From positions 1 through 45,629 of the forward strand of contig JANYED010000088.1 of NCBI GenBank assembly GCA_025363315.1: DNA of 45,629 nt. The letters run 5' to 3'. The position numbers and the translations under genes were made by a program. The stretch's first letter is position 1. Every line of letters begins with the position of its first letter. The notes under the pieces are model-generated. The model was not told the DNA's origin. It was given only the letters and a program-made list of their open reading frames with translations, and made no database searches. The stretch comes from Polaromonas sp. (lineage in GTDB: Bacteria; Pseudomonadota; Gammaproteobacteria; Burkholderiales; Burkholderiaceae_C). Below, piece after piece: positions 1 to 13,438 of the stretch.

Positions 1-135
1 GCTACGCTGAATAAGCGCCGTCAAAGAACCCAGTCGGGTTGATGGCAGATCGATTTGGACTCAACACGTCGCCGCGCGACGCTGCTTGCGGCCCATCGGG
101 CCTGTTGCGCGGGTCTCACGGCTCGTTTTGTGCCC

Positions 136-1114
136 TCATGGGCGCACCTGTGCCATCAACCGTTGTCGGCTGAGGTAGATATTGGCCAGTGCCAGGGCCG
201 TGAACGCCCGTGTCGCGTTCTTGGCCAGGCCGCGGTAGCGCACCTTGCCAAAACCCCACAGCCGCCTGACCACGCCGAACACATGCTCCACGCGCGAGCG
301 GATGCGCGCCTTGTCGCGAGTTCTTCGCCTTGAGGGCCTCGTCCACGATGCCGTTGCGACGCGTGCGCTGGTTGGTGAAGTATTTGGCTTTGGGCGCTTT
401 GCCTTCAATCAGCTTTTTTTGGCTGGCATAGGCTGAGTCACCGCACACGCGCCGCTCTTGCCCATGCAGCAAGTCAGGCAACGGATGCTTGTCGTGCACA
501 TTGGCCGCTGTGACGACGGCGCTGTGCGTCAGACCGCTTTGGCTGTCCACTGCGCTGCGCAGCTTCATGCCGAAGTACCACTACTGGGCCTTGCGGGTTT
601 GATGCATTTCGGGGTCGCGCGCCTTGTCCGCGTTCTTGGTGGAGCTGGGTGCGCCGATGATGGTGGCGTCCACGATGGTGGCGGTGTTGACCTTGAAGCC
701 TCGGGCCTGCAGTTCTTGCCCCACCTGCGCGAACAGCGCCTCACCGAGCTTGTTGTTATTGAGTAGGCGCCGAAACTTCAGCAGCGTGGTGGCATCAGGC
801 ACCGGCTCACTGCCCAGATCGATACCCACGAAGCGGTGCAGACTGGCACTATCGTACAACGCCTCCTCGCAGGCCAGACCGGCTTGGTTGAAACAGTGCT
901 GGATAAAGTGAATGCGCAGCATGCGCTCCAGGCCAATGGGCGGACGGCCATTACCGACCTTCGGGTAGTGCGGCTCGATGACTGCGCACAGCGCCTCCCA
1001 TGGCATGATCGCCTCCATGGTCGCCAGAAACTCGTCTCGCCTCGTCCGCTTGTGGTACTGCTCGTACCCCGATTGGTCAGCGGCCATGGCAAGGGTCTGT
1101 TGTTTCATCGTCAT
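136..1114 (-). pseudogene. IS5-family transposase, broken by a stop codon and a frameshift
   Basis: This is a DDE transposase of the IS5 group, the enzyme that cuts and joins insertion sequence ends. The N-terminal piece begins at 1114 with MTMKQQTLAMAADQSGYEQY and carries the family's DATIIGAPSSTKNADKARDP stretch. A TAG at 581-583 (minus strand) interrupts it exactly where the family has a Gln before WYFGMK, so CAG to TAG is the likely change. The reading frame continues past the stop (GLTHSAVVTAANVHD, GDSAYAS) until about position 319, where one extra base shifts it; the correct C-terminus (RVEHVFGVVRRLWGFGKVRY, ALALANIYLSR) resumes in the next frame and ends at 136. Two independent lesions mean the element cannot make its own transposase. 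Terminal inverted repeats were not resolved by eye. Family assignment is firm; the exact IS name is not. Confidence 0.9.
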
Positions 1115-1497: not shown

Positions 1498-2691
1498 ATG
1501 ACTACACAGTTTTCAAAAGTTGACGATTCTTACGACATTCGCTTTGACGTTCCTCAGGTTCAGCGTTTACGTTTTACAAAAGATGTGTTCAGCGCAGACA
1601 TCGAAGTTCTAACGGCGCTAATCGAGCGCTCGGGCCCAGCACCCGCAAAGGTGCAGATCTGGGTGGACAACGGCCTCCAGGCCTCACAAGGCGACGCCTT
1701 CAAAAAGCTACATGCCCGACTCAATGACGAAGAGCATATTGATGTGGTGGACGATGTCCAGTTTGTACCGGGCGGGGAAGACTGCAAACGTGACCCACGC
1801 TTAGTTGAATCAATGTTGTCAACGTTTAACAAGGCAAACCTTGACAGAAGAAGCTACGTGCTTGTAATCGGTGGTGGAGCTGTGCTTGACGCGGTCGGGT
1901 TTGCTGCAGCAACTGCACACCGAGGCATACGGCTGATTCGAATTCCCACGACCACGCTCGCGCAAGGCGATTCTGGTGTGGGCGTCAAGAACGCCATTAA
2001 TTTTTTTGAAAAGAAAAATTGGCTTGGTACTTTTGCGACGCCTTGGGCAGTCATCAATGACGCCAAAATATTGGAGACACTGCCGAATCGTGATTTCAGA
2101 TGCGGGTTTGCCGAGGCAGTCAAAGTGAGTCTGCTTAAATCAGCGGAACAGTTTGAGACTTTGGTTGCCAATGCCTCCCTGATCTTTAACCGAGATGCAG
2201 AAAAAACCCATCAGGCGCTTAAACACTCTGTGCTGCTGCATCTGGAGCACATCACGCGCGGCGGAGACCCTTTTGAGGCTGAAATGGCCAGACCACTGGA
2301 CTTTGGACATTGGAGCGCGCACAAGCTTGAACCGCTGTCGAACTACACACTGCGCCACGGCGAAGCAGTGTCTATCGGTGTAGCGCTTGACAGTCTGTAC
2401 AGCTCACGCGTGTACGGGCTGTCAAAGGTTGATGCGCACCGGGTTGTGGGTTGTTTAGCCCAAATTGGTTTGCCAACTTCGCATCCACGTCTCGCAGACA
2501 AAAAAACACTCTTTGATGGGCTGGAAGAGTTCCGCCAGCATCTTGGTGGAGAGCTCACAATCACGATGATTGACCAGCCTGGTCAGCCGGTGAACGTAAA
2601 CACCATTGATTACGTTGAAATGGGTGCTGCGATTGACGAGCTTATTGAAATTTCCGGTGGCCCGAACGCGATTGGGCGAGAGTTTTCGTGA
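1498..2691 (+). CDS. EboD-like sugar phosphate cyclase (3-dehydroquinate synthase superfamily)
   Basis: Predicted NAD- and metal-dependent cyclase of the dehydroquinate synthase / sugar phosphate cyclase superfamily, closest by eye to the EboD branch rather than to AroB. Visible motifs are PGGEDCK (91-97), the dinucleotide-binding GGGAVLD (125-131), RIPTTTLAQGDSGVGVKNAI (148-167), the metal-ligand Glu in FAEAVKV (204-210) and the metal-ligand His residues in LDFGHWSAHKL (about 267-277) and LRHGEA (285-290). All catalytic-type residues appear intact. The length (397 aa) suits the EboD type. These enzymes close linear sugar phosphates into cyclitols; the substrate here cannot be read from sequence. 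It is the first gene of a nine-gene run, and its stop codon overlaps the GTG start of the next gene (GTGA at 2688). No UbiA-like, TatD-like or xylose-isomerase-like Ebo partners are present, so this is not a classical ebo operon. Confidence 0.85.
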   Translation: MTTQFSKVDDSYDIRFDVPQVQRLRFTKDVFSADIEVLTALIERSGPAPAKVQIWVDNGLQASQGDAFKKLHARLNDEEHIDVVDDVQFVPGGEDCKRDPRLVESMLSTFNKANLDRRSYVLVIGGGAVLDAVGFAAATAHRGIRLIRIPTTTLAQGDSGVGVKNAINFFEKKNWLGTFATPWAVINDAKILETLPNRDFRCGFAEAVKVSLLKSAEQFETLVANASLIFNRDAEKTHQALKHSVLLHLEHITRGGDPFEAEMARPLDFGHWSAHKLEPLSNYTLRHGEAVSIGVALDSLYSSRVYGLSKVDAHRVVGCLAQIGLPTSHPRLADKKTLFDGLEEFRQHLGGELTITMIDQPGQPVNVNTIDYVEMGAAIDELIEISGGPNAIGREFS

Positions 2692-3665
2692 CACAAGTCG
2701 GCTTGGGTGATGTCGTAGATTTTGCCAGGGTGGGTGGATTGGCTGGAGTAGGTCATGCGGTCGCTGTTCAATTAGCCTTCCTGCGAGAGCTCAACGATAT
2801 CAAACGGCTTTACGCCCAAAACCTTGGATCGCACTCCTATGCAACCCACATTTTTTTGAGGGCTACCGAACCACTCCGCTCAGGCCAGCCACTGCAAGCT
2901 GATGCGTGGTGCGCTGCAATTGTGGGTGCTGCACGCCTAGGCGCTATTACGCCAAGTGTCCTTCAAGACGTTGGTATCGGTCAGTCTGACAGGCTCGTTG
3001 TACTGTCAAATTCCATACTGGCCCAGCAGTCCCTTACAAAGTCAATGAGTGATACGTTGACTGCTGCTTGTGATCAGCTTGACAAGATTTATGCGCAGGC
3101 CCCTACCAAGGTACCGACTTGGGTGACGCTGTCAACAGCGTCACCACGGGCCGGCGCAACCTGCCCAGGCAAACCACGCATTGCACTTGAGCCCGCAGAG
3201 ATGCACAGCGACCATTGCATCATGGTCGCGGTCTATGCTTTTTTGTTAGCTGACATATTTGGCGCGGACCGGGAAGACGCTTGGCTGATTGGGCTTTGCC
3301 ATCACCTCCACAATGCGTACCTGCCTGATGCCGGCTTTACCGGTGAGGTACTTTTGGGTGACCACTTAGACCGTGTAATCAGCGCATTGCGTTTGCGTGC
3401 GTTGGGTGCATTTTCGGAGCAATATTGCACCCGGGTGAGTCGCCTTTTTGATGAGATCAACAATCTTGCCTCGCCCCTTGCCCGAGCGTTTCATGCGGCA
3501 GACACCATCGACCGTGTCGTGCAGATGGAGCATTACGAACGGACAGCACAGTTCAGGGTTGCGACCGCGCTAGAAGAGTTCAATCTGGTTCACGAAGGCG
3601 CAGCTCAAGAGTTTCAGCATGCCTTGTTACAATCAGTAGGTATTTCTTACAAAACCGCTTTATGA
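2688..3665 (+). CDS. Divergent HD-domain-like protein
   Basis: A 325-residue protein of uncertain function. The C-terminal half resembles an HD-type metal-dependent phosphohydrolase: HSDH at 173-176, CHHLHN at 204-209 where the family has the His-Asp doublet, and HAADTIDRV at 269-277 supplying a late Asp. The Asp of the HD doublet is His here, so either the metal site has changed or the protein is inactive. The N-terminal half (1-150) matches nothing I recognise. The start is GTG and overlaps the stop of the cyclase gene by four bases; its own stop overlaps the next ATG (ATGA at 3662), so it is translationally coupled on both sides and should belong to the same pathway. A role such as removing a phosphate from the cyclase product is possible but is inference only. 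Confidence 0.55.
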   Translation: MTQVGLGDVVDFARVGGLAGVGHAVAVQLAFLRELNDIKRLYAQNLGSHSYATHIFLRATEPLRSGQPLQADAWCAAIVGAARLGAITPSVLQDVGIGQSDRLVVLSNSILAQQSLTKSMSDTLTAACDQLDKIYAQAPTKVPTWVTLSTASPRAGATCPGKPRIALEPAEMHSDHCIMVAVYAFLLADIFGADREDAWLIGLCHHLHNAYLPDAGFTGEVLLGDHLDRVISALRLRALGAFSEQYCTRVSRLFDEINNLASPLARAFHAADTIDRVVQMEHYERTAQFRVATALEEFNLVHEGAAQEFQHALLQSVGISYKTAL

Positions 3666-5905
3666 GCCCGCGTTGGTTTGAGTTGCTTGACCCCGTCACG
3701 CGTGCGCGGTTGAAGTTTCACGCGGTTGGAGAAAACACCGCGTTTGGGTATTGGTCGAGTGAAGGCAGCGCTCAAACGTGGCCGATGGTCTTTGACATCA
3801 GTTTTCTCCGTGTTGATCGGGCAGAACTTGCAACGCAGGTGTGTACGCTTGTCAAAATGCAAGACTTCGCCAACGCGGCTGCTTTACTGTTACAGGACAC
3901 AGACGACTTCGCCCCGACCATTGCTCCGCTTAGCGAATGTCACCGCATCGCTGAGCGATTGCTAGCCAACGACCCCGAACTTCTTGCCTGCGACGTGATG
4001 CAAGCGCTCGAATTTGGGCCGGTTGCAGATTACTTTGCACTGCGCGGCTCAGCCCCCACATTTTTTTCAGGACTTGGCCTTTTAAAGCTTGGCGTGCAAC
4101 CTGGCCAGCCGTTGATTGAGGTGGGATGCGGCGTAGGCCATTTTTTAAATTGGCTGACAACGCGCGGAATCACTGCTCTTGGCACTGACTCGGTTTTTAG
4201 CAAACTTTGCTTGGCGAGCCGCTACATGGCCGTTAAACCCAACCTTCTCTTGTGCGCTGTTTCTGGAAAAAAAACACCGCTCCCGATAGAGACTTTTCAG
4301 CCCAGCAATGTTTTTTGCCACGATGTGTTCTATTTCATAGATGACAAGCCAAGTGCAATTGCAGATTTTCGACGTTTGGCGGGCTTGGCTGGCAACATCA
4401 TGGTGGGTCACGCTCACTTGGCTACTGCTGATCATGGGATCGTTTCAGGTTACCCGCTGTCCATAGATGCTTATCGTCAAATCGCGTTGAAAGAAGCCTG
4501 TTTTTTTGACGATGCGGCTCTTGCATCCATTGACCTTACAGGCGCTCGCCTTCAGCCTAAGATTGCCGAAACAGCCGAAGCCATTTCATTTATCGAAGGA
4601 GAACTGGCGGCAGGCAATTCGCGCTGGTGGAACTTTGCAAATGAAGTCTTGTTTGCACCGATACACTTGACTTGGTCTCATATTGATCGCCTGACCACCA
4701 TGAATTGGCCGAGTCAAGCATTTGCGCAAGAGTACCAATCGTCGGACTATCTCGTGTCAACTGAGAACCCTTTCGAGTATTTGCCATTCCAGGGCAACAG
4801 TGAGTCTCTACCCCTTCATCCGGGGCTAGCCGTTGCGGCACCTTTCTTCGCGCTAGGTGTTAAACCTTTGCGTTGGGGCATTATTGGCGGTGGGTGGATT
4901 GCTGCAGATTATTTCGTCCCAGCATTTCAGTTTTGTCCCCATGCTCAGCTTGTTGCAGTTTGCGACATAAAAAACGAGCGCCTAAATGCGTTTTCCCATA
5001 TCGCTGGACTGCAGCTGTTCTCGGAGCTGCGTGAAATGCTTGTGGCCTGTAGGCTTGATGCTGTGTACATCGCCACACCTAATTGCTTTCACGCAGAAAT
5101 TTTTGAAGCAGTTGCCGCATACGGCATTCGCATACTGAGCGAAAAACCACTGGCGACTAATCAAGCTGATTTAGACAAAATCCGGGCCTGCACGGTTTCA
5201 TCACCAGAATTTTTCCAAACTGCATTCGACCAAAGGTATCACCCGGCTCATGTTCAGTTGGCGCGGCGTCTTGCTGGAGGGGTTTTGGGTACTGTGACAC
5301 AAGTTCGTATGCATTACGCTTGTTGGCTAGACGATGGTTGGAGCAAAGTGTCAGCAACGGAAAATTGGCGAATTGACCCACACCGCGCGGGCGGTGGAGC
5401 AGGCTTTGATTTGCTACCGCATTGTCTTGACTTGATGCTGATGCTGACCGATGACGCGGTCGCGGCGGCGCATTTGTTCTACCAGCGACGGATTCACAAT
5501 TACTCAACTGTCCTGGGGGTGGATGACGGTGCAGTTATGACCGTCATGACTCAAAAAGGAGTTCTCGTAAGTATGCATGTTGGTTATAACTGCCCCGAAA
5601 ACCAACCGCGTCGCCGAATCGAGATTCTTGGAACACATGGCCGTGTTGAGGCACACAACACTATGGGACAGGACGCTGGTGGTGAGTTGGTTTGGCAGAT
5701 TCAAGGTCACGAATCCCGCGAAATTTTTCCAGATGGCTTGGCAGCTGGTCCTTTTGTTCGGCAACTGGACACGCTTTCCCGTCAATGGATAAGGGGTGAT
5801 CTGCCTCGGTTTCCCATACAGCGAGACATTGACTTAGCAGAATGTTTGGTCCGTTGCGACAGTCAGGCAACGGACATATTGGGTCTGCAAGGTGTGCATT
5901 CATGA
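3662..5905 (+). CDS. Fusion: SAM methyltransferase + Gfo/Idh/MocA oxidoreductase
   Basis: A 747-residue two-enzyme protein. Residues 1-140 are an N-terminal region of unknown type. Residues about 145-300 form a class I SAM-dependent methyltransferase with motif I LIEVGCGVGHFL (151-162) and an acidic residue after the next strand (GTD, 174-176). Residues about 403-745 form a Gfo/Idh/MocA dehydrogenase with the Rossmann start RWGIIGGGWIAADYF (404-418), the strand AVYIATPNCFH (467-477), the catalytic-lysine motif SEKPLA (493-498) and a His-containing GFDLLPHCLDL. Gfo/Idh/MocA enzymes oxidise or reduce sugars and cyclitols, inositol being the classic substrate, which suits a neighbour that makes cyclitols. 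No frameshift separates the halves, so the fusion looks genuine. ATGA overlaps at both ends couple it to its neighbours. Substrates are unknown. Confidence 0.85.
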   Translation: MSPRWFELLDPVTRARLKFHAVGENTAFGYWSSEGSAQTWPMVFDISFLRVDRAELATQVCTLVKMQDFANAAALLLQDTDDFAPTIAPLSECHRIAERLLANDPELLACDVMQALEFGPVADYFALRGSAPTFFSGLGLLKLGVQPGQPLIEVGCGVGHFLNWLTTRGITALGTDSVFSKLCLASRYMAVKPNLLLCAVSGKKTPLPIETFQPSNVFCHDVFYFIDDKPSAIADFRRLAGLAGNIMVGHAHLATADHGIVSGYPLSIDAYRQIALKEACFFDDAALASIDLTGARLQPKIAETAEAISFIEGELAAGNSRWWNFANEVLFAPIHLTWSHIDRLTTMNWPSQAFAQEYQSSDYLVSTENPFEYLPFQGNSESLPLHPGLAVAAPFFALGVKPLRWGIIGGGWIAADYFVPAFQFCPHAQLVAVCDIKNERLNAFSHIAGLQLFSELREMLVACRLDAVYIATPNCFHAEIFEAVAAYGIRILSEKPLATNQADLDKIRACTVSSPEFFQTAFDQRYHPAHVQLARRLAGGVLGTVTQVRMHYACWLDDGWSKVSATENWRIDPHRAGGGAGFDLLPHCLDLMLMLTDDAVAAAHLFYQRRIHNYSTVLGVDDGAVMTVMTQKGVLVSMHVGYNCPENQPRRRIEILGTHGRVEAHNTMGQDAGGELVWQIQGHESREIFPDGLAAGPFVRQLDTLSRQWIRGDLPRFPIQRDIDLAECLVRCDSQATDILGLQGVHS

Positions 5906-7170
5906 GGATCTGCTTTATTTCCCGTCGCTACTTTCCCGCAATAAGTGGCATGAGCGTGTACGCCCAAAACTACCTGCGCGAAATGGTAGCTCTTGGACAC
6001 GATATCGTGATGATTTCTCAATATCGCAACGACGAAGCTGGCACCAAAATTTACGGTGGTGGCCCACCGGGCAAAGTTAAAGGCGTTACCGTTATCGGTT
6101 TGGAGTCGCTTGGCGAGCAGCGTGTGAACTTGGGGCAACCAGCAGACTTTGAAGCGGATATCGCCGCCATGGTTAACGCAGGGGTTGCACAACATCAAAT
6201 CAAACCCTTTGACGTTGTGCACGCTCAGTATGCGTACCCGAACGGCTTTGCAGCGATTGAAATCTCTCGACGACTGGACATTCCAAACGTCGTGAGTATT
6301 CAGGGAGGCGATGGTCATTGGGTCGGGCTGTGCTGTGAGACCCACCGACGCGCCATTGGTGCTGTTTTTAACCATGCCAACGAACTCATCATTGGTTGTG
6401 CTTCATTCGCTCAAGAAGTGCACTGCCACCATGGTGTGCCACTGGAGCGATTTACCCTTGTTCCAGGTGCTATCAACGCCGATCATTTTCGTCCACGAAC
6501 AGATCGTTTGCTTGGTGGTGTTGGGACTCCTGCTGTTTTGCTTTATCACGGACGTGTTGATAAGCGCAAAGGGGTGCTGGAGCTTATTGAAGCGCTGGGT
6601 CTCCTCGCCGCTGCGGGCCGAAATGTGCGCTTAGTCATCAGTGGAATTGGGCCAGATCTTGCAGCCGCTAAAGATCTGGCAAGTACGATTCGACTGGACC
6701 ACATCATTGACTTCACAGGCCATGTTTCATACGAAAATGTGCCTGAGGTGTATCGATCCGCCGACCTTTTTGTGTCGCCAACTTGGTCTGAGGGGTTTTC
6801 CAACACCATACTCGAAGCAATGGCTAGCGGACTGCCAATCGTTGCAGCGCGCGCCATTGGTGTGGTCGATTGCCTGACTGACGGTGTAAATGCGCTTTTT
6901 CATGAGATTCATGACGTTGTTGGCTTAAGCACGCAGATCGGTACGCTGCTTGACAACGACTTGCTGCGACGCCAGCTCGCAACAAATGCGATGCGAGAAG
7001 TCCAAAGCAAGTATCGTTGGCCTGCGATCGCATTGCAGCTAGCTGGAAGGCTAAGCCACGTCTTATCTGCAGCACCCGACAACACATGGACTGAGAACTA
7101 TTCGCCCACAACATCTATTGCCGACGCCGATCTAGGGTGTCGCTTCAGGCAGGCACCGCATCTGCTATGA
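5902..7170 (+). CDS. GT4-family glycosyltransferase
   Basis: A GT-B-fold retaining glycosyltransferase of family 4 (422 aa). The N-terminal acceptor domain starts MRICFISRRYFPAISGMSVY; the C-terminal donor domain has LLYHGRVDKRKGVLELIEAL with the Arg/Lys that bind the donor phosphates, and the E-x7-E motif at Glu297 and Glu305 (EGFSNTILEAMASGLPIVAA). I chose the ATG at 5902 because it forms an ATGA overlap with the upstream stop and begins the fold properly; an in-frame start 60 bases upstream would add unrelated residues. Family members include MshA and BshA, which put GlcNAc on inositol phosphate or malate before a PIG-L enzyme deacetylates it; here a PIG-L gene follows directly. The natural donor and acceptor are not known. 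Confidence 0.9.
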   Translation: MRICFISRRYFPAISGMSVYAQNYLREMVALGHDIVMISQYRNDEAGTKIYGGGPPGKVKGVTVIGLESLGEQRVNLGQPADFEADIAAMVNAGVAQHQIKPFDVVHAQYAYPNGFAAIEISRRLDIPNVVSIQGGDGHWVGLCCETHRRAIGAVFNHANELIIGCASFAQEVHCHHGVPLERFTLVPGAINADHFRPRTDRLLGGVGTPAVLLYHGRVDKRKGVLELIEALGLLAAAGRNVRLVISGIGPDLAAAKDLASTIRLDHIIDFTGHVSYENVPEVYRSADLFVSPTWSEGFSNTILEAMASGLPIVAARAIGVVDCLTDGVNALFHEIHDVVGLSTQIGTLLDNDLLRRQLATNAMREVQSKYRWPAIALQLAGRLSHVLSAAPDNTWTENYSPTTSIADADLGCRFRQAPHLL

Positions 7171-7937
7171 GCGCCATTCTCGTTTTGTCGCCCCACCTGG
7201 ACGACGCTGCTTTTTCACTTGGACCGTTGCTTGCTGAGTTGTCTGTTCGAGCACAAATTTTCGTCGCGACTGCTTTTACCAAATCGAATTCCACGCTGAG
7301 CGAGTTCGCGCTGGCTTGCCAACTAGATAAAGGTTTGTCCGCCGATGTCGATTACATGGCCATCAGGCGCCACGAAGACCTTGAATGGTCACGGCGAATT
7401 GGCGTTCAAACAATACACGGCAATTTTGCCGAGGCACCGCATCGGGGCTACCAGTCTGCCAAAGAGTTATTTGGCGATGTGCTGGCAACAGACCAGCTTG
7501 AAGACGCTTTGAAAGTATGGTTAGAAACACTGACCAGCACAATTAAACCGACAGTAATCCTTTGTCCAATTGGCGTCGGCGGTCATGTGGATCATGTGTG
7601 GATTCGCAAAGTCGCAAGCGCAGCGCTTGGCCATAGATTTCCGTTGTTTTTCTTCAAAGACCTGCCGTATGCATCAACATTGAGTTTTTTTAATGCTGAT
7701 GCGCATTTGGGCAACTCCAGCACTTGTCGAGAGCTGAACGTGCCCCTTCCCCAAGCCGCGTTTTTAACGGCACAATTTGCCGCCGAGGCGTATCAGACCC
7801 AAATTGCTTTTCAATTTGGCAATGTCGGGCAGATGAAGAAAACACTTAACGAAGCTTGGACACAGGGTCTACCGCTGTATCACACACACGCTTGCTCAGA
7901 CTCAACTAAGGCGTTTCTAATCATGGAACATGATTGA
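7167..7937 (+). CDS. PIG-L/LmbE-family N-deacetylase
   Basis: A zinc-dependent deacetylase of the PIG-L family (256 aa), the group that includes MshB and BshB and removes acetyl from N-acetylglucosaminyl conjugates. The zinc and catalytic motif PHLDD is at residues 9-13 (His10, Asp12, Asp13) and the second motif GHVDH ends at His143. Both are intact. The start at 7167 is chosen because it forms ATGA with the stop of the glycosyltransferase gene; the longer in-frame start lies inside that gene. Pairing directly after a GT4 gene suggests that the glycosyltransferase adds an N-acetylated amino sugar and this enzyme frees the amine for later acylation. That order of events is inference from MshA/MshB and BshA/BshB. 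Confidence 0.9.
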   Translation: MSAILVLSPHLDDAAFSLGPLLAELSVRAQIFVATAFTKSNSTLSEFALACQLDKGLSADVDYMAIRRHEDLEWSRRIGVQTIHGNFAEAPHRGYQSAKELFGDVLATDQLEDALKVWLETLTSTIKPTVILCPIGVGGHVDHVWIRKVASAALGHRFPLFFFKDLPYASTLSFFNADAHLGNSSTCRELNVPLPQAAFLTAQFAAEAYQTQIAFQFGNVGQMKKTLNEAWTQGLPLYHTHACSDSTKAFLIMEHD

Positions 7938-7939
7938 TC

Positions 7940-8803
7940 ATGCCCGGCCTAGCTGTATTTTTACCGTCTCTTGAACTGCCGGCCTGCGTCTGCAGAAACT
8001 GTGGATTTTGGCAACGAAGTTTTTTGAAACCCATCGACTGTCCAATCTGCAAAGATTTCAGGCATATATTGCCGCCTACTGGCTGGGATTTTTACACCTC
8101 AGATGAGGCAAGTCTGATGTTCCCGATGGGCTGGGAGGAAATACTGCCCGGCTTATGGCATTTTTGGAACGATCCAGTTGACGGCATCGGAAGCCATTCC
8201 TACTTGGTGCAACGCGAGCAAGGAAATCTAGTTTTTGAGGGCGCAACAATTTATTCTGCCAGTGCGCTTGAACACATTGCCGCTTTGGGTGGCGTTCAAT
8301 TTGCTTCCGCTTCACACCCTCATACTTACGGCGCGCTGTGGCAATTGCAAGACCATTTTGACGCACACATTGCACTTCACAAAGGCGATCTGGCCTGGAC
8401 AAGTGCTTTTCGAGTGACGCATCCGTTCGATGACAAACTGGATTTCTCGCCGCGCCTTAGATTACTGCACGCAGGGGTGCATTTTGAAGGGCAGGCTTTC
8501 CTCGTTGATGAGGATCGCGGCCTCATTTTTTGCGGTGATGCGATGAAGTTTGACCTTAGAAAAGATAACCCGCGCTCCGCCGTAGCGATTTCGTCCCATA
8601 AATCTTATGTCCGTAGCATATCTCTGACTGCTGGTGAAATAACACAGTACCGTGCCGTTTTTCGTCAAAACAAGTTCAATAAAGTCTACAGTCCGTTTGA
8701 ACAGGTGCACAACGTCGACTCTGAAATGGTTGACAGGTATTTGTCCCGCTTGGCAGAACAGTTCCCACAAGCAAATTTTATCGATCTTGCTGATCTTTTA
8801 TAG
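7940..8803 (+). CDS. Metallo-beta-lactamase-fold protein with N-terminal zinc ribbon
   Basis: A 287-residue protein with two parts. Residues 16-37 hold CVCRNC and CPIC, giving C18-x2-C21 and C34-x2-C37, a rubredoxin-like or zinc-ribbon knuckle. Residues about 60-260 look like a metallo-beta-lactamase fold: a SHPHTYG motif with His126 and His128, a later His in LLHAGVHFEG and a FCGDAM motif providing the bridging Asp. The usual Asp-His of HxHxDH is replaced by Tyr-Gly, so the metal site is incomplete compared with hydrolytic members. The ATG at 7940, two bases after the previous stop, is preferred; a TTG at 7934 would overlap that stop and is also possible. Function is unknown; it may handle a redox or hydrolytic step in the cluster. 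Confidence 0.7.
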   Translation: MPGLAVFLPSLELPACVCRNCGFWQRSFLKPIDCPICKDFRHILPPTGWDFYTSDEASLMFPMGWEEILPGLWHFWNDPVDGIGSHSYLVQREQGNLVFEGATIYSASALEHIAALGGVQFASASHPHTYGALWQLQDHFDAHIALHKGDLAWTSAFRVTHPFDDKLDFSPRLRLLHAGVHFEGQAFLVDEDRGLIFCGDAMKFDLRKDNPRSAVAISSHKSYVRSISLTAGEITQYRAVFRQNKFNKVYSPFEQVHNVDSEMVDRYLSRLAEQFPQANFIDLADLL

Positions 8804-8810
8804 CTTGAAC

Positions 8811-8855
8811 ATGGGTATGAATATTTCGAACAATTTTCCAGCAGATAAAAGTTAA
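8811..8855 (+). other. Possible 14-codon leader ORF coupled to the GNAT gene
   Basis: In the 51-base gap before the GNAT gene an ATG at 8811 opens a 14-residue frame (MGMNISNNFPADKS) whose TAA shares its last A with the GNAT start (TAATG, 8853-8857). It may only carry ribosomes to the next start. It could also be chance, and no clear ribosome binding site marks it. Confidence 0.2.
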
Positions 8856-9724
8856 TGAGCAACTTAGTCGTGGCGAATCAAACAACGTCCGCATCTGAAA
8901 TATCAATACTTCCAAAGCGGTGGGATGTCGCGTTTCCGCTAGACAAAAAAACGCTTTTCAGAGTATCTCAAGGCGGTTCAGGCCAGCAAATTGGCGTTGT
9001 GGTGCGGCAGTACAGTGCCCACGAAGCAAGGTTTGTGCTGCGCGGAGAAATCAAGTCACCAAAAGACCTTGTTACTTGTCTCGAATTGGCGGAGGCAACT
9101 GCTCGTCAGCTGGGTTGTGATGCCCTAACAACTCAAGAAAAAGTACCCCCTCAATGGTGCGACGCTTTCGTCATTTTTCAAAAACAAGGGTTCACAGCAG
9201 TAGATGAGTCTTGGGTTTTTAATGGCTCGTTTGAATCTTTTGCCGACCGAATTCAACGAATAGCGTCAATGCTCAGTCTTAAAAAAGCGATCCCTCAAGG
9301 AGCAAGAATCAGCAGTCTGGCTGAGGCAAAGGATCAAGTCCGAGCGTTACTAAACGAATCGCTGATGATGGATGATTTTGAGTTTGACAATCGCTTCAAG
9401 AATTCGAACCCGAAACCAATTTCTGCCGCGTACAGTCAAATTGCCTGGCATGGACAGAAAATTGTTGGCGTGTTGCTGGTCGCACCCACCAATGACTGGC
9501 GCGTATACGACATCCCGATGCGATATGTTCTACCCGACTACCGACAAACTTGGGTCAACGCACTGCTGATTGCGGCTAGCATTCAGCATGGTAGAAATCT
9601 AGGCGCACAATATATTCAATTCGAGGCAAATCTGAAACTCCACCCGGAAACTTTGATCCTTGCCCAAAAGACCGGGTGCAGGCGCGTTGCAGTTTTCAAC
9701 CGATTTGAAAAATCACTGCTTTAA
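8855..9724 (+). CDS. Tandem GNAT-fold acyltransferase
   Basis: A 289-residue protein that appears to hold two GNAT (N-acyltransferase) domains. The N-terminal half (about 45-130) ends in FQKQGFTAVDESWVF, the typical last strand region of a GNAT fold. The C-terminal half (about 155-289) has SSLAEAKDQVRALLNESLMM, a central strand region around IAWHGQKIVGVLLVAP and a second end, LAQKTGCRRVAVFNRF. The acetyl-CoA pyrophosphate loop (Q/RxxGxG/A) is not clear in either half, so catalytic competence is uncertain. Mycothiol synthase MshD is also a tandem GNAT protein, and here the gene follows GT4 and PIG-L genes, so acylation of the amine freed by the deacetylase is a reasonable guess. The ATG at 8855 overlaps the stop of a mini-ORF; the YcaO gene begins nine bases after its stop. 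Confidence 0.7.
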   Translation: MSNLVVANQTTSASEISILPKRWDVAFPLDKKTLFRVSQGGSGQQIGVVVRQYSAHEARFVLRGEIKSPKDLVTCLELAEATARQLGCDALTTQEKVPPQWCDAFVIFQKQGFTAVDESWVFNGSFESFADRIQRIASMLSLKKAIPQGARISSLAEAKDQVRALLNESLMMDDFEFDNRFKNSNPKPISAAYSQIAWHGQKIVGVLLVAPTNDWRVYDIPMRYVLPDYRQTWVNALLIAASIQHGRNLGAQYIQFEANLKLHPETLILAQKTGCRRVAVFNRFEKSLL

Positions 9725-9733
9725 AAATTTTGT

Positions 9734-11269
9734 ATGCAAATTGACACCCACCAATTGAATTCTGCTATTGCAACGTATCGCCAATTTCTTGAGGGTAATA
9801 GTCTTCAGATATTCGATATTTCAAGTTTGGATCGCATTGGAATTCCAATCTTCTTGGCTTCCCTGCGAGCTGACGGCGGTTTTATTAATAACGGTGTTGG
9901 TTATGGCAACACTTCTAACGAAGCGCTGGTTGGCGCGCTGGGCGAGTTGTCGGAAACATTCCATGTCCATCGCGCACTGCAGTCTGCCCCTGCGTGTGAG
10001 GCAATCTGCTACACCGAGATGGTGAATCATTTCGGAGCTGATCAGGTCATTGACCCCCTAACACTCTGTTTGTCCGCTGGCTATCCGTATCACGACACAC
10101 TGCCGCTGCGGTGGGTGGCCGTGACCAGGTTGGGTGACAGTGTGCGTTGCTGGGCGCCGCGAGAGGCTGTGGCGTTCAGCGGTTTTAGTTACGACATGCA
10201 CTCTAGCCATGTCGTGCTGCAGAGCAACAAAGAAAGCGCCAAGCTTTTTCCGCCAATTACTTGTGGTCTCGGCGCGGGGCTGACTCTTGAGCAGGCTTTG
10301 TCACACGGTGTTTTGGAGCTCTTACAACGTGACGGCAACTGCACCTCTTTTCGCGCCATGGATCAAGGCGTTGACATTGAACTTGATGTGATTGAAAGCA
10401 AGGAAATAAAAGCGACACTGTCGCACCTAGGCAGCCTTGGTCTTCGAATACGGGCCAAGCTTGCTTCTACTGAATTTGGGCTGGTAAACCTTTTTGTTAT
10501 TGCTGAGCCAATTGATAGTAGCAGCGCAAACGAGACGTTTCCCCTTGTAGCCACAGCGTGTGGCGAAGCCGTGCATCAAAATCGTGAGCGGGCCCTTGGC
10601 AAAGCACTGCACGAATTCATTTCGTCCAGGAGCCGAAAGACTTTCATGCACGGATCCATTGACAAAGTACGAGCGCTGGCACCATCTGAGTATCTGCAAA
10701 ACAGCCTTGAAGCAGCTCAGCCAAAGTGGGAAGAACCCAAAGCATTAACTGAAATGACAAGCTGGCTCAAAAAGTCCCAGGCAGAACTATTTGACCTGCT
10801 GCGAAATACGATGTTTTCCTCGCGTGAGACTGTTAAGTTCTCGTCACTGACCAGTACTCTGGATGATCTTGTCTATGACCCAAAACACCGATTAGATGAT
10901 CTCGTCAGAAGGCTGGCAACACAGGACATTTGTATTTACTACTTTGACGGTTCTCCAAGCGGAGCAGGTAGCCCAGCGGTGGTTAGAGCCATTGCCCCAG
11001 GTCTTGAAGGCGAAACGCTGAGTTACTGGCGAATGGGTGCACGTGGAGCCAAGAGGCTTCTTGCCCGGCAATCGAGTTTGATTTCACAGAAGCTTCCGCA
11101 AGCACAACACCTTGCCATTGCGCTGCGCCCTGCAGCCCAAGAAGCGCTCGGTGGGCCGATTTACTTCAAAGTTCCTGAATGGGAAAAAATTCTTCACGGA
11201 CACTACCCGCTTTATCGTGAACCTTCGCCGCACACGACGCAAAAATACATGGGTAACCATGGAGCCTAA
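9734..11269 (+). CDS. Standalone YcaO-domain protein
   Basis: A YcaO-superfamily protein (511 aa). YcaO enzymes use ATP to phosphorylate an amide oxygen, giving azolines, amidines or thioamides in peptides and other substrates. Three nucleotide/Mg motifs are visible: GNTSNEALVGALGELSETFH (58-77; Glu71, Glu74), GLTLEQALSHGVLELLQRDG (182-201; Glu195 and Gln198) and a third around RERALGKALHEFISSR. Gln198 stands where classic members have a second Glu (ELxERD), which may be a subfamily trait. No E1/ocin-ThiF partner, TfuA, dehydrogenase or obvious precursor peptide lies nearby, so a peptide substrate is not indicated. The C-terminus lacks the PxPxP tail of azoline-forming members. The gene is tightly packed between the GNAT and acyltransferase genes and its last 11 bases overlap the latter. 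Confidence 0.9.
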   Translation: MQIDTHQLNSAIATYRQFLEGNSLQIFDISSLDRIGIPIFLASLRADGGFINNGVGYGNTSNEALVGALGELSETFHVHRALQSAPACEAICYTEMVNHFGADQVIDPLTLCLSAGYPYHDTLPLRWVAVTRLGDSVRCWAPREAVAFSGFSYDMHSSHVVLQSNKESAKLFPPITCGLGAGLTLEQALSHGVLELLQRDGNCTSFRAMDQGVDIELDVIESKEIKATLSHLGSLGLRIRAKLASTEFGLVNLFVIAEPIDSSSANETFPLVATACGEAVHQNRERALGKALHEFISSRSRKTFMHGSIDKVRALAPSEYLQNSLEAAQPKWEEPKALTEMTSWLKKSQAELFDLLRNTMFSSRETVKFSSLTSTLDDLVYDPKHRLDDLVRRLATQDICIYYFDGSPSGAGSPAVVRAIAPGLEGETLSYWRMGARGAKRLLARQSSLISQKLPQAQHLAIALRPAAQEALGGPIYFKVPEWEKILHGHYPLYREPSPHTTQKYMGNHGA

Positions 11270-11999
11270 GCGAAGTAATTCCATTTTGTCCGCGGATTCG
11301 TTAGATTTCACAACGCATTTCGGTGTGCCCGAAATGTGGTCCCGCTTGCTTGGGCTTCGCGCTGCTGAGGCATATTGCAAAACCTTGCCTGTTTCGGCCG
11401 GATTGGCTGCCTGCGTCGACCGAGTGGCGCTTGATTACGGGCTTGACGTTGAACACATCAAAAATGCTGCCAGGCCTATTCCACAGACCGGGGCGCTTTT
11501 CGTGACTGCAAATCACCCCACCGGAATTCTTGACGGTGTGGTGTTGCTGTGCGCGCTACTGAGCCGCCGCAGCGATGTGCGGATTGTTGCAAATGATTTG
11601 CTGTGCAGCATCCCTGTTTTAGGACATCGGGTGATCCCAATCAAAAAAACGCGTGTTGGAGACAGTAACGGGACTGGTGCGCTACTGGGTATTCGACGCG
11701 CCTGGAAACGCAATGAGTGTGTGGTGGCGTTCCCGGCTGGCACGGTTTCCCATTGGCAATGGAAAGGTATGGCAATCGCGGATGCGCCTTGGACAAACGG
11801 CATTCAAAATTTTTCAGCATCATTGAACGTACCTGAATACCGAGCCTGCCTTACGATCCGAAATCCTGACTGGTTTCACATTTGTGCGGCGTTTTCGCGG
11901 AGCGCTCGCTTGGCTTTGCTGCTTCGCGCTTTTCTCTCAAACGCCGTCCGTCAGCCATCTCACCCCGTCGAGTTCAGCTTACTTGACAGAACTCTTTGA
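11259..11999 (+). CDS. PlsC-like acyltransferase (hemolysin-type NHP...D)
   Basis: A 246-residue acyltransferase related to PlsC and to the hemolysin/OlsA-type O-acyltransferases that load fatty acyl groups onto lysophospholipids or hydroxylated amines. The catalytic motif is NHPTGILDG (His-x5-Asp, the spacing of the hemolysin-type branch rather than the HX4D of PlsC). The glycerol-phosphate-type motif appears as FPAGTVS (usually FPEGTRS), and RIVANDLLCSIPVLGHRVIP supplies the conserved central block. The ATG at 11259 is preferred because it overlaps the YcaO stop and removes an unrelated basic leader. As the last gene of the run it may acylate the cluster product, which would make it membrane-bound; the substrate is not known. 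Confidence 0.75.
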   Translation: MEPKRSNSILSADSLDFTTHFGVPEMWSRLLGLRAAEAYCKTLPVSAGLAACVDRVALDYGLDVEHIKNAARPIPQTGALFVTANHPTGILDGVVLLCALLSRRSDVRIVANDLLCSIPVLGHRVIPIKKTRVGDSNGTGALLGIRRAWKRNECVVAFPAGTVSHWQWKGMAIADAPWTNGIQNFSASLNVPEYRACLTIRNPDWFHICAAFSRSARLALLLRAFLSNAVRQPSHPVEFSLLDRTL

Positions 12000-12090: not shown

Positions 12091-13146
12091 ATGCTTAATA
12101 TTTTTGGTCAAAAAGGGCAGAAAGTTTTGGTTACTGGCGGTGCTGGATACATCGGCTCCCATACAACCTTGGCTTTGCTTCAGGCCGGCGCAGACGTAGT
12201 GGTATTAGACAATTTACAAAACAGCTCTGCGCAATCTCTGCACCGCGTTGCTCAAATCGCTGGGCGCTCGCCCATTTTCGTGAAAGGAGATGTTCGTGAT
12301 CGGGCTGTTTTAGAAGCTATATTTGCCGAACACTCTGTTAGCGCTGTCTTGCATTTTGCTGGCCTAAAAGCGGTTGGCGAAAGCGTTGGTGCACCTTTAA
12401 CTTATTACGACAACAATGTTCATGGCAGCCAAGTTCTACTTCAGGTAATGGACAAAGCAAACGTGCGCTGTCTTGTTTTTAGTTCATCAGCAACTGTTTA
12501 TGGCGTGCAAACCCAAATGCCAATTGCGGAGACTTGTCCGGCAGGCCAACTTAATAACCCGTATGGGCGTAGCAAGCTGGTTGTAGAGTGCATGTTGCGT
12601 GACGTGGCAGCCTCAGATTCGCGCTGGAAACTGGCAATACTTCGCTACTTCAACCCCGTTGGAGCGCATAAAAGTGGATTGATTGGGGAGGACCCCAGAG
12701 GTATTCCAAACAATCTGCTGCCTTATATCTGTCAAGTTGCACTCGGTAAGCGCCCATTCTTAACGGTGTTTGGAGGCGACTATCCGACCCATGATGGAAC
12801 GGGCGTAAGGGATTACATACACGTTGTTGATCTGGCTGATGCCCATTTGTGCGCCCTTAAGGCAATCCAAAGTCGGACGGGGGCACATGTCTGGAATTTA
12901 GGCACAGGTATGGGTTACAGCGTGCTGGAGGTTGTCTCTGCCTTCGAGGCTGCCAGCCAGCGAAAGGTGCCCTATCGCACAACTGAGCGGCGTGTTGGCG
13001 ACGATGCGATCTGTTTTGCAGACTCAACCAAGGCAGAGCGTGAAATTGCTTGGAAAGCATCTCGTGGTTTATCTGAAATGATGAGTGACGCCTGGAGGTG
13101 GCAGAGCATGAATCCAAATGGCTACGTTAACACCCCAGAACTGTGA
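12091..13146 (+). CDS. galE: UDP-glucose 4-epimerase
   Basis: An extended short-chain dehydrogenase that interconverts UDP-glucose and UDP-galactose (some members also the N-acetyl forms). NAD-binding GGAGYIG is at residues 16-22, the catalytic Ser lies in VFSSSATVYG and the Tyr-x3-Lys is YGRSK. The C-terminus (VRDYIHVVDLADAH, NLGTGMGYSV) is complete; at 351 aa it is slightly longer than E. coli GalE because of a short N-terminal extension, and a later start is possible. It sits 91 bases after the acyltransferase gene on the same strand and has the same AT-rich look as the cluster, so it may supply a nucleotide sugar to the cluster glycosyltransferase, or it may be an independent surface-sugar gene. 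Confidence 0.93.
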   Translation: MLNIFGQKGQKVLVTGGAGYIGSHTTLALLQAGADVVVLDNLQNSSAQSLHRVAQIAGRSPIFVKGDVRDRAVLEAIFAEHSVSAVLHFAGLKAVGESVGAPLTYYDNNVHGSQVLLQVMDKANVRCLVFSSSATVYGVQTQMPIAETCPAGQLNNPYGRSKLVVECMLRDVAASDSRWKLAILRYFNPVGAHKSGLIGEDPRGIPNNLLPYICQVALGKRPFLTVFGGDYPTHDGTGVRDYIHVVDLADAHLCALKAIQSRTGAHVWNLGTGMGYSVLEVVSAFEAASQRKVPYRTTERRVGDDAICFADSTKAEREIAWKASRGLSEMMSDAWRWQSMNPNGYVNTPEL

Positions 13147-13332: not shown

Positions 13333-13345
13333 TCTTCACTTTTAC

Positions 13346-13438
13346 TGGCGGAATCGGAGAGATTCGAACTCTCGATGAGGCTCTACACCCCATACTCCCT
13401 TAGCAGGGGAGCACCTTCGGCCACTCGGTCACGATTCC
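13346..13438 (-). tRNA. tRNA-Ser (anticodon GCU)
   Basis: The minus strand reads GGAATCGTGACCGAGTGGCC at the 5' end and GATTCCGCCA at the 3' end, a perfect acceptor stem with encoded CCA. The anticodon arm is CTCCC-CTGCTAA-GGGAG, giving anticodon GCU (serine, AGC/AGU codons). The long variable arm of class II tRNAs and a GTTCGAATC T-loop are present. Length is 93 nt with CCA. Confidence 0.97.

What the first reader, a model, noticed from the sequence alone, without database searches (positions are those of the whole stretch)
1498..11999. Candidate undescribed biosynthetic cluster built around an EboD-like cyclase and a YcaO enzyme
Nine plus-strand genes are packed with stop/start overlaps at most junctions (GTGA, ATGA, TAATG). 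They encode a sugar phosphate cyclase, HD-like protein, methyltransferase-oxidoreductase fusion, GT4, PIG-L deacetylase, MBL-fold protein, tandem GNAT, YcaO and PlsC-like acyltransferase. I know of no described pathway with this combination. EboD clusters normally include UbiA, TatD-like and xylose-isomerase-like partners, none of which is here. Together the families suggest a decorated cyclitol pseudoglycoside; the product is inference.
Basis: partly seen in the sequence, partly recalled or inferred. Interest (0 to 1): 0.88.

Follow-up and report, generated by a model that had tools for sequence, protein, structure and literature searches.

The report
Widespread uncharacterised cyclitol–YcaO gene cluster
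Nine side-by-side bacterial genes here are a rare version of a pathway, found in distant bacterial phyla and in nearly every Methylobacterium-group genome examined, that probably builds a sugar-decorated ring compound, perhaps a natural sunscreen, and for which I found no described product.

Summary
The nine genes are real and tightly packed; 5 of 8 junctions overlap. They are one form of a conserved block. A YcaO-profile scan kept 80 loci; with 4 plasmid loci that makes 84, of which 75 span HD…YcaO…PIG-L on one strand, all 75 also with the Gfo/Idh oxidoreductase and GT4. Hosts lie in 8 phyla. 108 of 111 Methylobacterium-group genomes carry the YcaO family, against 1 of 299 in the window's own family: this copy was acquired, beside a tRNA-Ser.

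The constant core is HD–oxidoreductase–YcaO–GT4–PIG-L; the cyclase is exchangeable. Most relatives have inositol-3-phosphate synthase plus a TIM-barrel isomerase; the window, four other loci and one found afterwards have an EboD-type cyclase and neither of those. A tree rejects one origin for this form.

Best reading: an oxidised, usually O-methylated cyclitol bearing glucosamine (MshA-like GT4, PIG-L), aminated by a YcaO acting on a non-peptide. A UV-A screen is a testable guess. Product and chemistry are inferred. My searches of one open library found no paper on the cluster.

The parts
1498..2691 (+). EboD-type sugar phosphate cyclase; stands where most relatives have Ino1 plus an isomerase
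   Evidence: NF004852 465 bits; groups with seven EboD-type proteins, apart from two S7P cyclases and two AroB
2688..3665 (+). HD-fold protein with HH in place of the HD pair; role unknown
   Evidence: HD_3 22.0 bits, cut-off 22.5; H173, H176, H205, H206, D272, D275 invariant in 28 rows; model pLDDT 89, only weak matches to HDDC2-type proteins
3662..5905 (+). Methyltransferase-oxidoreductase (Gfo/Idh/MocA) fusion; separate genes in most relatives
   Evidence: Pfam; inositol-dehydrogenase-like; K100, D188, H192 of the oxidoreductase half conserved in 79 of 81 rows
5902..7170 (+). GT4 glycosyltransferase; nearest solved relatives include D-inositol-3-phosphate glycosyltransferase (MshA)
   Evidence: start moved from ORF start 5842 to the ATG at 5902
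7167..7937 (+). PIG-L (LmbE) de-N-acetylase, SPHLDDA...HVDH motifs intact
   Evidence: PF02585 42 bits; nearest solved relatives are glycopeptide pseudoaglycone deacetylases; motif residues in 79-80 of 80 rows
7940..8803 (+). MBL-fold metalloprotein with N-terminal Cys4 ribbon; lacks the DH of HxHxDH
8855..9724 (+). GNAT-like protein, found only in the window and L007
   Evidence: weak single GNAT hit; 44% to L007; 1 of 84 loci
9734..11269 (+). YcaO enzyme of a distinct family; no TfuA or E1-like partner among the nine
   Evidence: PF02624 131 bits; 85-row family alignment
11259..11999 (+). PlsC-like acyltransferase (OlsF/GlsA-related), found only in the window and L007
   Evidence: PF19576 33.8 bits, NF052615 97 bits with cut-off 620; 1 of 84 loci
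12091..13146 (+). galE-like gene on the same acquired segment; membership in the pathway uncertain
   Evidence: NF007956 484 bits; at most 53% to genes of three congeners, low GC3
13346..13438 (-). tRNA-Ser(GCT); the acquired segment begins at its 3' end
   Evidence: ARAGORN; homology with 3 of 3 congeners starts at 13340-13346

Best explanation
The block is a horizontally acquired pathway for a glucosaminyl-cyclitol (a pseudodisaccharide) whose ring is oxidised, O-methylated and aminated. Shown: the conserved block, its exchangeable cyclase module, conserved catalytic motifs where checked, and acquisition next to tRNA-Ser. Inferred steps: (1) the EboD-type cyclase closes a sugar phosphate, probably sedoheptulose 7-phosphate, to a phosphate-free cyclic polyol ketone; in the common form Ino1, the oxidoreductase and a TIM-barrel isomerase reach a comparable inosose. 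(2) The oxidoreductase half oxidises the ring and the methyltransferase half O-methylates the enol, as the MT-Ox protein does in gadusol synthesis. (3) The MshA-like GT4 adds GlcNAc and PIG-L frees the amine. (4) YcaO uses ATP to activate a ring carbonyl or vinylogous acid so that an amine replaces oxygen, giving an enaminone or imine, the job that ATP-grasp MysC does for mycosporines (recalled). (5) HD and MBL do unassigned phosphatase, hydrolase or redox steps. (6) In the window and L007 only, the GNAT-like and PlsC-like proteins acylate the product. Likely role: a polar UV-absorbing protectant.
For: Block: 75 of 84 loci span HD..YcaO..PIG-L on one strand, 75 of 75 with oxidoreductase and GT4; 8 phyla. 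Exchange: of those 75, 68 have Ino1 and isomerase, 3 the EboD-type cyclase and neither, 3 isomerase alone, 1 (L046) none of the three; over all 84: 69, 4, 7, 4; none of 84 has the cyclase with Ino1 or isomerase. L141, found afterwards, fits. One origin of the cyclase form is rejected, p-AU 1.9e-15; at least 3 changes. No Ino1 in the window's genome. GT4 is near MshA, PIG-L near glycopeptide pseudoaglycone deacetylases, oxidoreductase inositol-dehydrogenase-like. EEVS + MT-Ox makes gadusol (PMC4426668, passages). Acquisition: 1 of 299 family genomes, tRNA-Ser junction, GC3 0.45-0.53 against 0.58-0.69.
Against: No product, substrate or activity is known for any member. HD stays in the cyclase form, where no inositol phosphate needs removing. 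The methyltransferase was not found in 4 of 30 blocks outside Methylobacteriaceae/Beijerinckiaceae (L005, L016, L037, L058) nor in L069 and L141, so an O-methyl is not universal. L012, L017 and L060 have the isomerase but no Ino1 and L046 neither; Ino1 was not found in those four genomes (L017 and L046 start near contig ends). L014 and L020 have some kilobases around YcaO but no block. Only six cyclase-form copies are known here, several from MAGs. No ring-directed YcaO is known to me; EboD's own product is unknown (PMC5133447, passages).
Confidence: 0.5

Rival explanations
1. A mycothiol-like low-molecular-weight thiol or redox cofactor: cyclitol + GlcNAc (GT4), deacetylation (PIG-L), then YcaO in place of the cysteine ligase MshC and GNAT in place of MshD.
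For: Ino1 in 69 of 84 loci and PIG-L in 79 of 84; an MshA-type enzyme among the nearest GT4 relatives.
Against: No cysteine ligase among the nine window proteins; GNAT in 1 of 84 loci and not a clear tandem GNAT; the Hymenobacter plasmid copy lies beside a gene annotated bshB1, so that host appears to have another thiol. Oxidoreductase and methyltransferase are not needed for a thiol.
Confidence: 0.13
2. A surface glycolipid or envelope-glycan modification: the cyclitol-glucosamine unit is put on a lipid or glucan.
For: PimB/PimA among the GT4 relatives; PlsC-like and GNAT-like genes in the window and L007; a GT2 gene like the one annotated mdoH in L003 within the fetched stretch of 17 of 30 spanning loci outside Methylobacteriaceae/Beijerinckiaceae; MdoG beside L009.
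Against: The GT2 gene is absent from all 45 Methylobacteriaceae/Beijerinckiaceae spanning loci; PlsC in 1 of 84. No polymerase or flippase showed among the 20 flanking proteins scanned; MFS-type transporters adjoin L023 and L058 only.
Confidence: 0.2
3. A peptide (RiPP) pathway with thiazole or thioamide formation by YcaO.
For: YcaO enzymes mostly serve RiPPs (recalled); weak SagD-family similarity, 71 bits with cut-off 219.
Against: No TfuA or E1-like partner among the nine and little intergenic room for a precursor; no dedicated precursor search was run. Of three remote YcaO control loci two adjoin TfuA and none has the block. Ino1, GT4, PIG-L and isomerase are not usual RiPP enzymes.
Confidence: 0.04
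4. A degenerate or variant ebo cluster.
For: The cyclase belongs to the EboD lineage.
Against: None of the usual ebo partners is among the nine genes, while 6 of 7 EboD loci looked at have UbiA and EboE; 80 of 84 relatives have no such cyclase in the fetched stretch.
Confidence: 0.03

Closest known systems
Mycothiol pathway (MshA-MshB-MshC-MshD; pathway recalled)
   Same: Ino1 (in the common form) + MshA-like GT4 + PIG-L deacetylase logic
   Different: No MshC, no clear tandem GNAT; has oxidoreductase, methyltransferase, HD, MBL and YcaO
Gadusol pathway (EEVS + MT-Ox; PMC4426668, passages)
   Same: Sugar phosphate cyclase with a bifunctional methyltransferase-oxidoreductase
   Different: Cyclase is of the EboD lineage, oxidoreductase is Gfo/Idh; GT4, PIG-L and YcaO follow. 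Homology and domain order of the two fusions were not compared
Mycosporine-like amino acid pathway (MysA-MysB-MysC; recalled)
   Same: Cyclase, methyltransferase and an ATP-using amination step, if YcaO does that
   Different: No ATP-grasp enzyme among the nine proteins; glycosylation genes present
ebo cluster (PMC5133447, passages)
   Same: Cyclase of the EboD lineage
   Different: No other ebo gene among the nine
6-thioguanine pathway YcfA (recalled)
   Same: A YcaO working on a small non-peptide molecule
   Different: Different partners and substrate; not compared here

Membership tests
ebo cluster | EboD-lineage cyclase | tested here: met
   grouped with 7 EboD-type proteins, 99/98 support against S7P cyclases and AroB
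ebo cluster | UbiA-, TatD-, EboE-, EboA-type partners | tested here: not met
   none among the nine proteins
Mycothiol pathway | MshA-type inositol GlcNAc transferase | tested here: inconclusive
   among nearest solved relatives, but 80 bits on TIGR03449 with cut-off 462.5
Mycothiol pathway | MshC cysteine ligase | tested here: not met
   no such Pfam or NCBIfam hit in the nine proteins
Mycothiol pathway | Tandem-GNAT MshD | tested here: not met
   one weak GNAT half only; gene in 1 of 84 loci
Mycosporine / gadusol pathways | DDGS- or EEVS-type cyclase | tested here: not met
   EboD lineage, apart from two annotated S7P cyclases; no characterised DDGS or EEVS sequence was in that tree
Mycosporine-like amino acids | ATP-grasp MysC | tested here: not met
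   none in the nine proteins
YcaO superfamily | YcaO domain over curated cut-off | tested here: met
   PF02624 131 bits, cut-off 25.7
Azoline/thioamide RiPP clusters | E1-like or TfuA partner | tested here: not met
   no such family among the nine
Azoline/thioamide RiPP clusters | Precursor peptide | not tested
   judged only from small gaps between genes
Glucosaminyl-cyclitol product | Chemical structure | not testable with these tools
   needs isolation or in vitro reconstitution

The most novel reading that the evidence does not exclude
A YcaO enzyme that aminates a cyclitol rather than a peptide defines a new class of glycosylated, mycosporine-like UV-A screens. The ring can be supplied either by inositol-3-phosphate synthase plus an isomerase or by a single EboD-type cyclase, and the same pathway makes methylobamine, the UVA absorber reported from Methylobacterium.
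Probability: 0.22. Interest if true: 0.92.

Novelty: new variant of a known kind. Interest (0 to 1): 0.74.

Why it matters
A pathway whose YcaO gene 108 of 111 Methylobacterium-group genomes share, and that distant phyla carry on chromosomes and plasmids, seems to have no assigned product. It would extend YcaO chemistry to a sugar-derived ring. It gives a genetic handle on EboD, whose product is unknown, since an EboD-type cyclase repeatedly stands in for Ino1 plus an isomerase. And it makes the question of which genes make the Methylobacterium UVA absorber testable by a single deletion.

Tried and rejected
A single-sequence YcaO scan of genome contigs found nothing; the five-sequence profile found 170 relatives, of which the best 80 are held and 90 were not seen. 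HD as a MIOX/PhnZ-type oxygenase is not settled: Foldseek gave no match at E <= 0.001, its top rows are bestrophins with TM-scores of 0.13-0.16, the sensible matches are HD proteins (1xx7, HDDC2), and PhnZ is weak. MBL as a specific enzyme: many generic MBL matches, no assignment. Conserved flanking genes as a clue: 20 flanking proteins scanned differ from block to block. A photoprotection neighbourhood: of the annotated plasmid loci only L003 has spore photoproduct lyase genes next door; not tested as a statistic. A direct repeat of the tRNA 3' end as attachment site: none in the window besides the tRNA itself. A first presence table by profile counted an isomerase in L046 from a shadow reading frame across YcaO, because that profile included upstream-extended frames; the tblastn recount removed it, and the table used here is that. 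Literature: 'methylobamine', 'UVA-absorbing compound/Methylobacterium/YcaO/gene cluster' (top 20 of 996 listed), 'YcaO/inositol/PIG-L/gene cluster', 'YcaO + mycosporine' (0 papers), 'YcaO + inositol-3-phosphate synthase', 'YcaO + Methylobacterium' (unrelated), 'YcaO + cyclitol'. The library holds no bioRxiv and lacks most subscription journals, so a description elsewhere is not excluded. The structure of methylobamine was not available to me.
Full report
What is in the sequence. Nine plus-strand genes run from 1498 to 11999. Corrected starts place GT4 at 5902, PIG-L at 7167, MBL at 7940 and PlsC at 11259; 5 of 8 junctions overlap and the other gaps are 2, 9 and 51 bases. Families were checked with Pfam and NCBIfam: an EboD-type sugar phosphate cyclase, an HD-like protein, a methyltransferase-Gfo/Idh fusion, GT4, PIG-L, an MBL-fold protein, a GNAT-like protein, YcaO and a PlsC-like acyltransferase. 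The 'tandem GNAT' label does not hold up: one half gives a sub-threshold hit, the other none.

Where it sits. The block's genes have GC3 0.45-0.53, while lysC, tilS and accA next door have 0.58-0.69. In 3 of 3 congeneric genomes homology begins only at 13340-13346, the 3' end of a tRNA-Ser. In a draw of 299 genomes of the window's family 14 have some match, but only the window's own is strong (804 bits; next best 63); in an order-wide draw of 399 the one other hit was weak. A transposase in two broken frames lies at the left edge. The block is therefore an acquired island.

It is a conserved block. tblastn against plasmids found four strong relatives, from Roseomonas, two Methylobacterium and Hymenobacter. 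A five-sequence YcaO profile then found 170 relatives in the collection of 84,980 species, of which the best 80 are held. With the four plasmid loci that makes 84. By tblastn, 75 of 84 span HD to PIG-L on one strand and all 75 also carry the oxidoreductase and GT4; 45 share one gene order and 19 the same order plus MBL. Of the nine others, L015, L018, L022, L024, L029 and L085 are cut by contig ends, L069 has no PIG-L found, and L014 and L020 have a few kilobases on either side without the block. The 84 are not independent: 46 are Methylobacteriaceae or Beijerinckiaceae. Hosts of the 75 lie in seven phyla by record title plus Bacteroidota. As controls, three YcaO loci of 24-26% identity were inspected: 0 of 3 has the block and 2 of 3 adjoin TfuA. 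The nearest relative, a Verrucomicrobiota MAG (L007), has all nine genes in the window's order at 45-76% identity.

A core trait of Methylobacterium. Of 111 genomes in the genus of L053 (Methylobacterium sp.), 109 had a match; 108 score 759 bits or more, one only 34.7, two none. That search looked for YcaO alone; the surrounding block was checked in the held loci, where all 45 spanning Methylobacteriaceae/Beijerinckiaceae loci have Ino1, HD, methyltransferase, oxidoreductase, YcaO, isomerase, GT4 and PIG-L. In contrast, strong matches were rare in two phylum samples: 1 of 387 around L007's genome (its own) and 2 of 392 around L010's genome (its own and one new).

The cyclase module is exchangeable. 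In the 75 spanning loci, 68 have Ino1 and a TIM-barrel (AP_endonuc_2) isomerase, 3 have the EboD-type cyclase with neither, 3 have the isomerase alone (L012, L017, L060) and one has none of the three (L046). Over all 84 the figures are 69, 4, 7 and 4, several of the last two groups being cut contigs. None of 84 has the cyclase together with Ino1 or isomerase. The window is of the cyclase kind. A later draw from Planctomycetota gave one new locus (L141): cyclase, no Ino1, no isomerase by tblastn. On a 40-row tree of YcaO + GT4 + oxidoreductase + HD the cyclase form (6 rows, named by gene content) needs 4 changes, 3 forced by well-supported branches, and a single clade is rejected (p-AU 1.9e-15). 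Cautions: long branches L005 and L141 meet there, an earlier 44-row tree had already been seen, and both trees used only part of the Methylobacterium loci. The sister pair L058 (cyclase form) and L037 (Ino1 form) shows the exchange between relatives. Genome-wide, Ino1 was not found in the genomes of the window, L007, L058 or L069 but is present in L010's; the genomes of L012, L017, L046 and L060 also lack it (several are draft MAGs), which may mean imported inositol (inference).

What the parts say. The cyclase groups with seven EboD-type proteins, 99/98 support against two S7P cyclases and two AroB; the cyclase-form proteins fall in two sets whose separation is not well supported. GT4's best solved relatives are 3c4q/3c48 (MshA, recalled) and 7qsg, D-inositol-3-phosphate glycosyltransferase; then Tll1590, BshA-type and Pim enzymes. 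PIG-L is nearest to glycopeptide pseudoaglycone deacetylases and keeps its motifs. The oxidoreductase half resembles inositol dehydrogenases and keeps K100, D188 and H192 (roles recalled). HD is an odd HD-like protein with HH at the metal pair. MBL is present in all 30 spanning loci outside Methylobacteriaceae/Beijerinckiaceae and in none of the 45 inside; it has a Cys4 ribbon and an incomplete HxHxDH motif. The methyltransferase was not found in L005, L016, L037, L058, L069 and L141. The window's extra GNAT-like and PlsC-like genes recall the paired acyltransferases of ornithine and glycine lipids (inference).

Mechanism. The logic that fits is cyclitol + GlcNAc, deacetylation, ring oxidation and, in most copies, O-methylation, and an ATP-driven step by YcaO. 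The order is inferred. The pairing of a cyclase with a methyltransferase-oxidoreductase parallels gadusol synthesis (PMC4426668, passages). YcaO with an amine nucleophile has a precedent in bottromycin amidine formation (recalled). The UV-screen idea rests on the chemistry, the near-universality in Methylobacterium, and reports of UVA-absorbing compounds in that genus (PMC12573535, passage; PMC9664959, passage; the original papers were seen only as references). It is a guess to be tested, not a result.

Known or new. No paper that describes the block was found, within an open-licence library without bioRxiv. It fails a defining feature of the mycothiol, mycosporine, ebo and azoline/thioamide RiPP systems. 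I rate it a new variant among cyclitol natural-product pathways; it would be categorically new if YcaO is shown to act on the ring.

Noticed in passing
window 116-1114: Transposase on the minus strand split into two ORFs; appears broken, near the contig's edge.
   Followed up: no
L011, L015, L029, L058: Two or three YcaO genes of this family in one block (three in L015, a Myxococcaceae MAG).
   Followed up: no
L005 10087-11135: Oxidoreductase annotated as two ORFs in the Hymenobacter plasmid copy; a gene annotated bshB1 lies beside the block.
   Followed up: no
L003, L009, L030, L076: MdoH-like GT2 or MdoG genes next to blocks of Acetobacteraceae/Skermanella type; a link to osmoregulated glucans is untested.
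   Followed up: partly
L003 17807-19928: Two spore photoproduct lyase family genes directly downstream of the Roseomonas block.
   Followed up: no
L118: In the genome of L010 (cyclase form) a separate Ino1 gene lies beside an isomerase-like gene (87 bits), away from the block.
   Followed up: no
G718, G724, G744: The three Methylobacterium-group genomes without a strong YcaO match are large (6.9, 8.8, 7.7 Mb); their species and habitat are not told.
   Followed up: no
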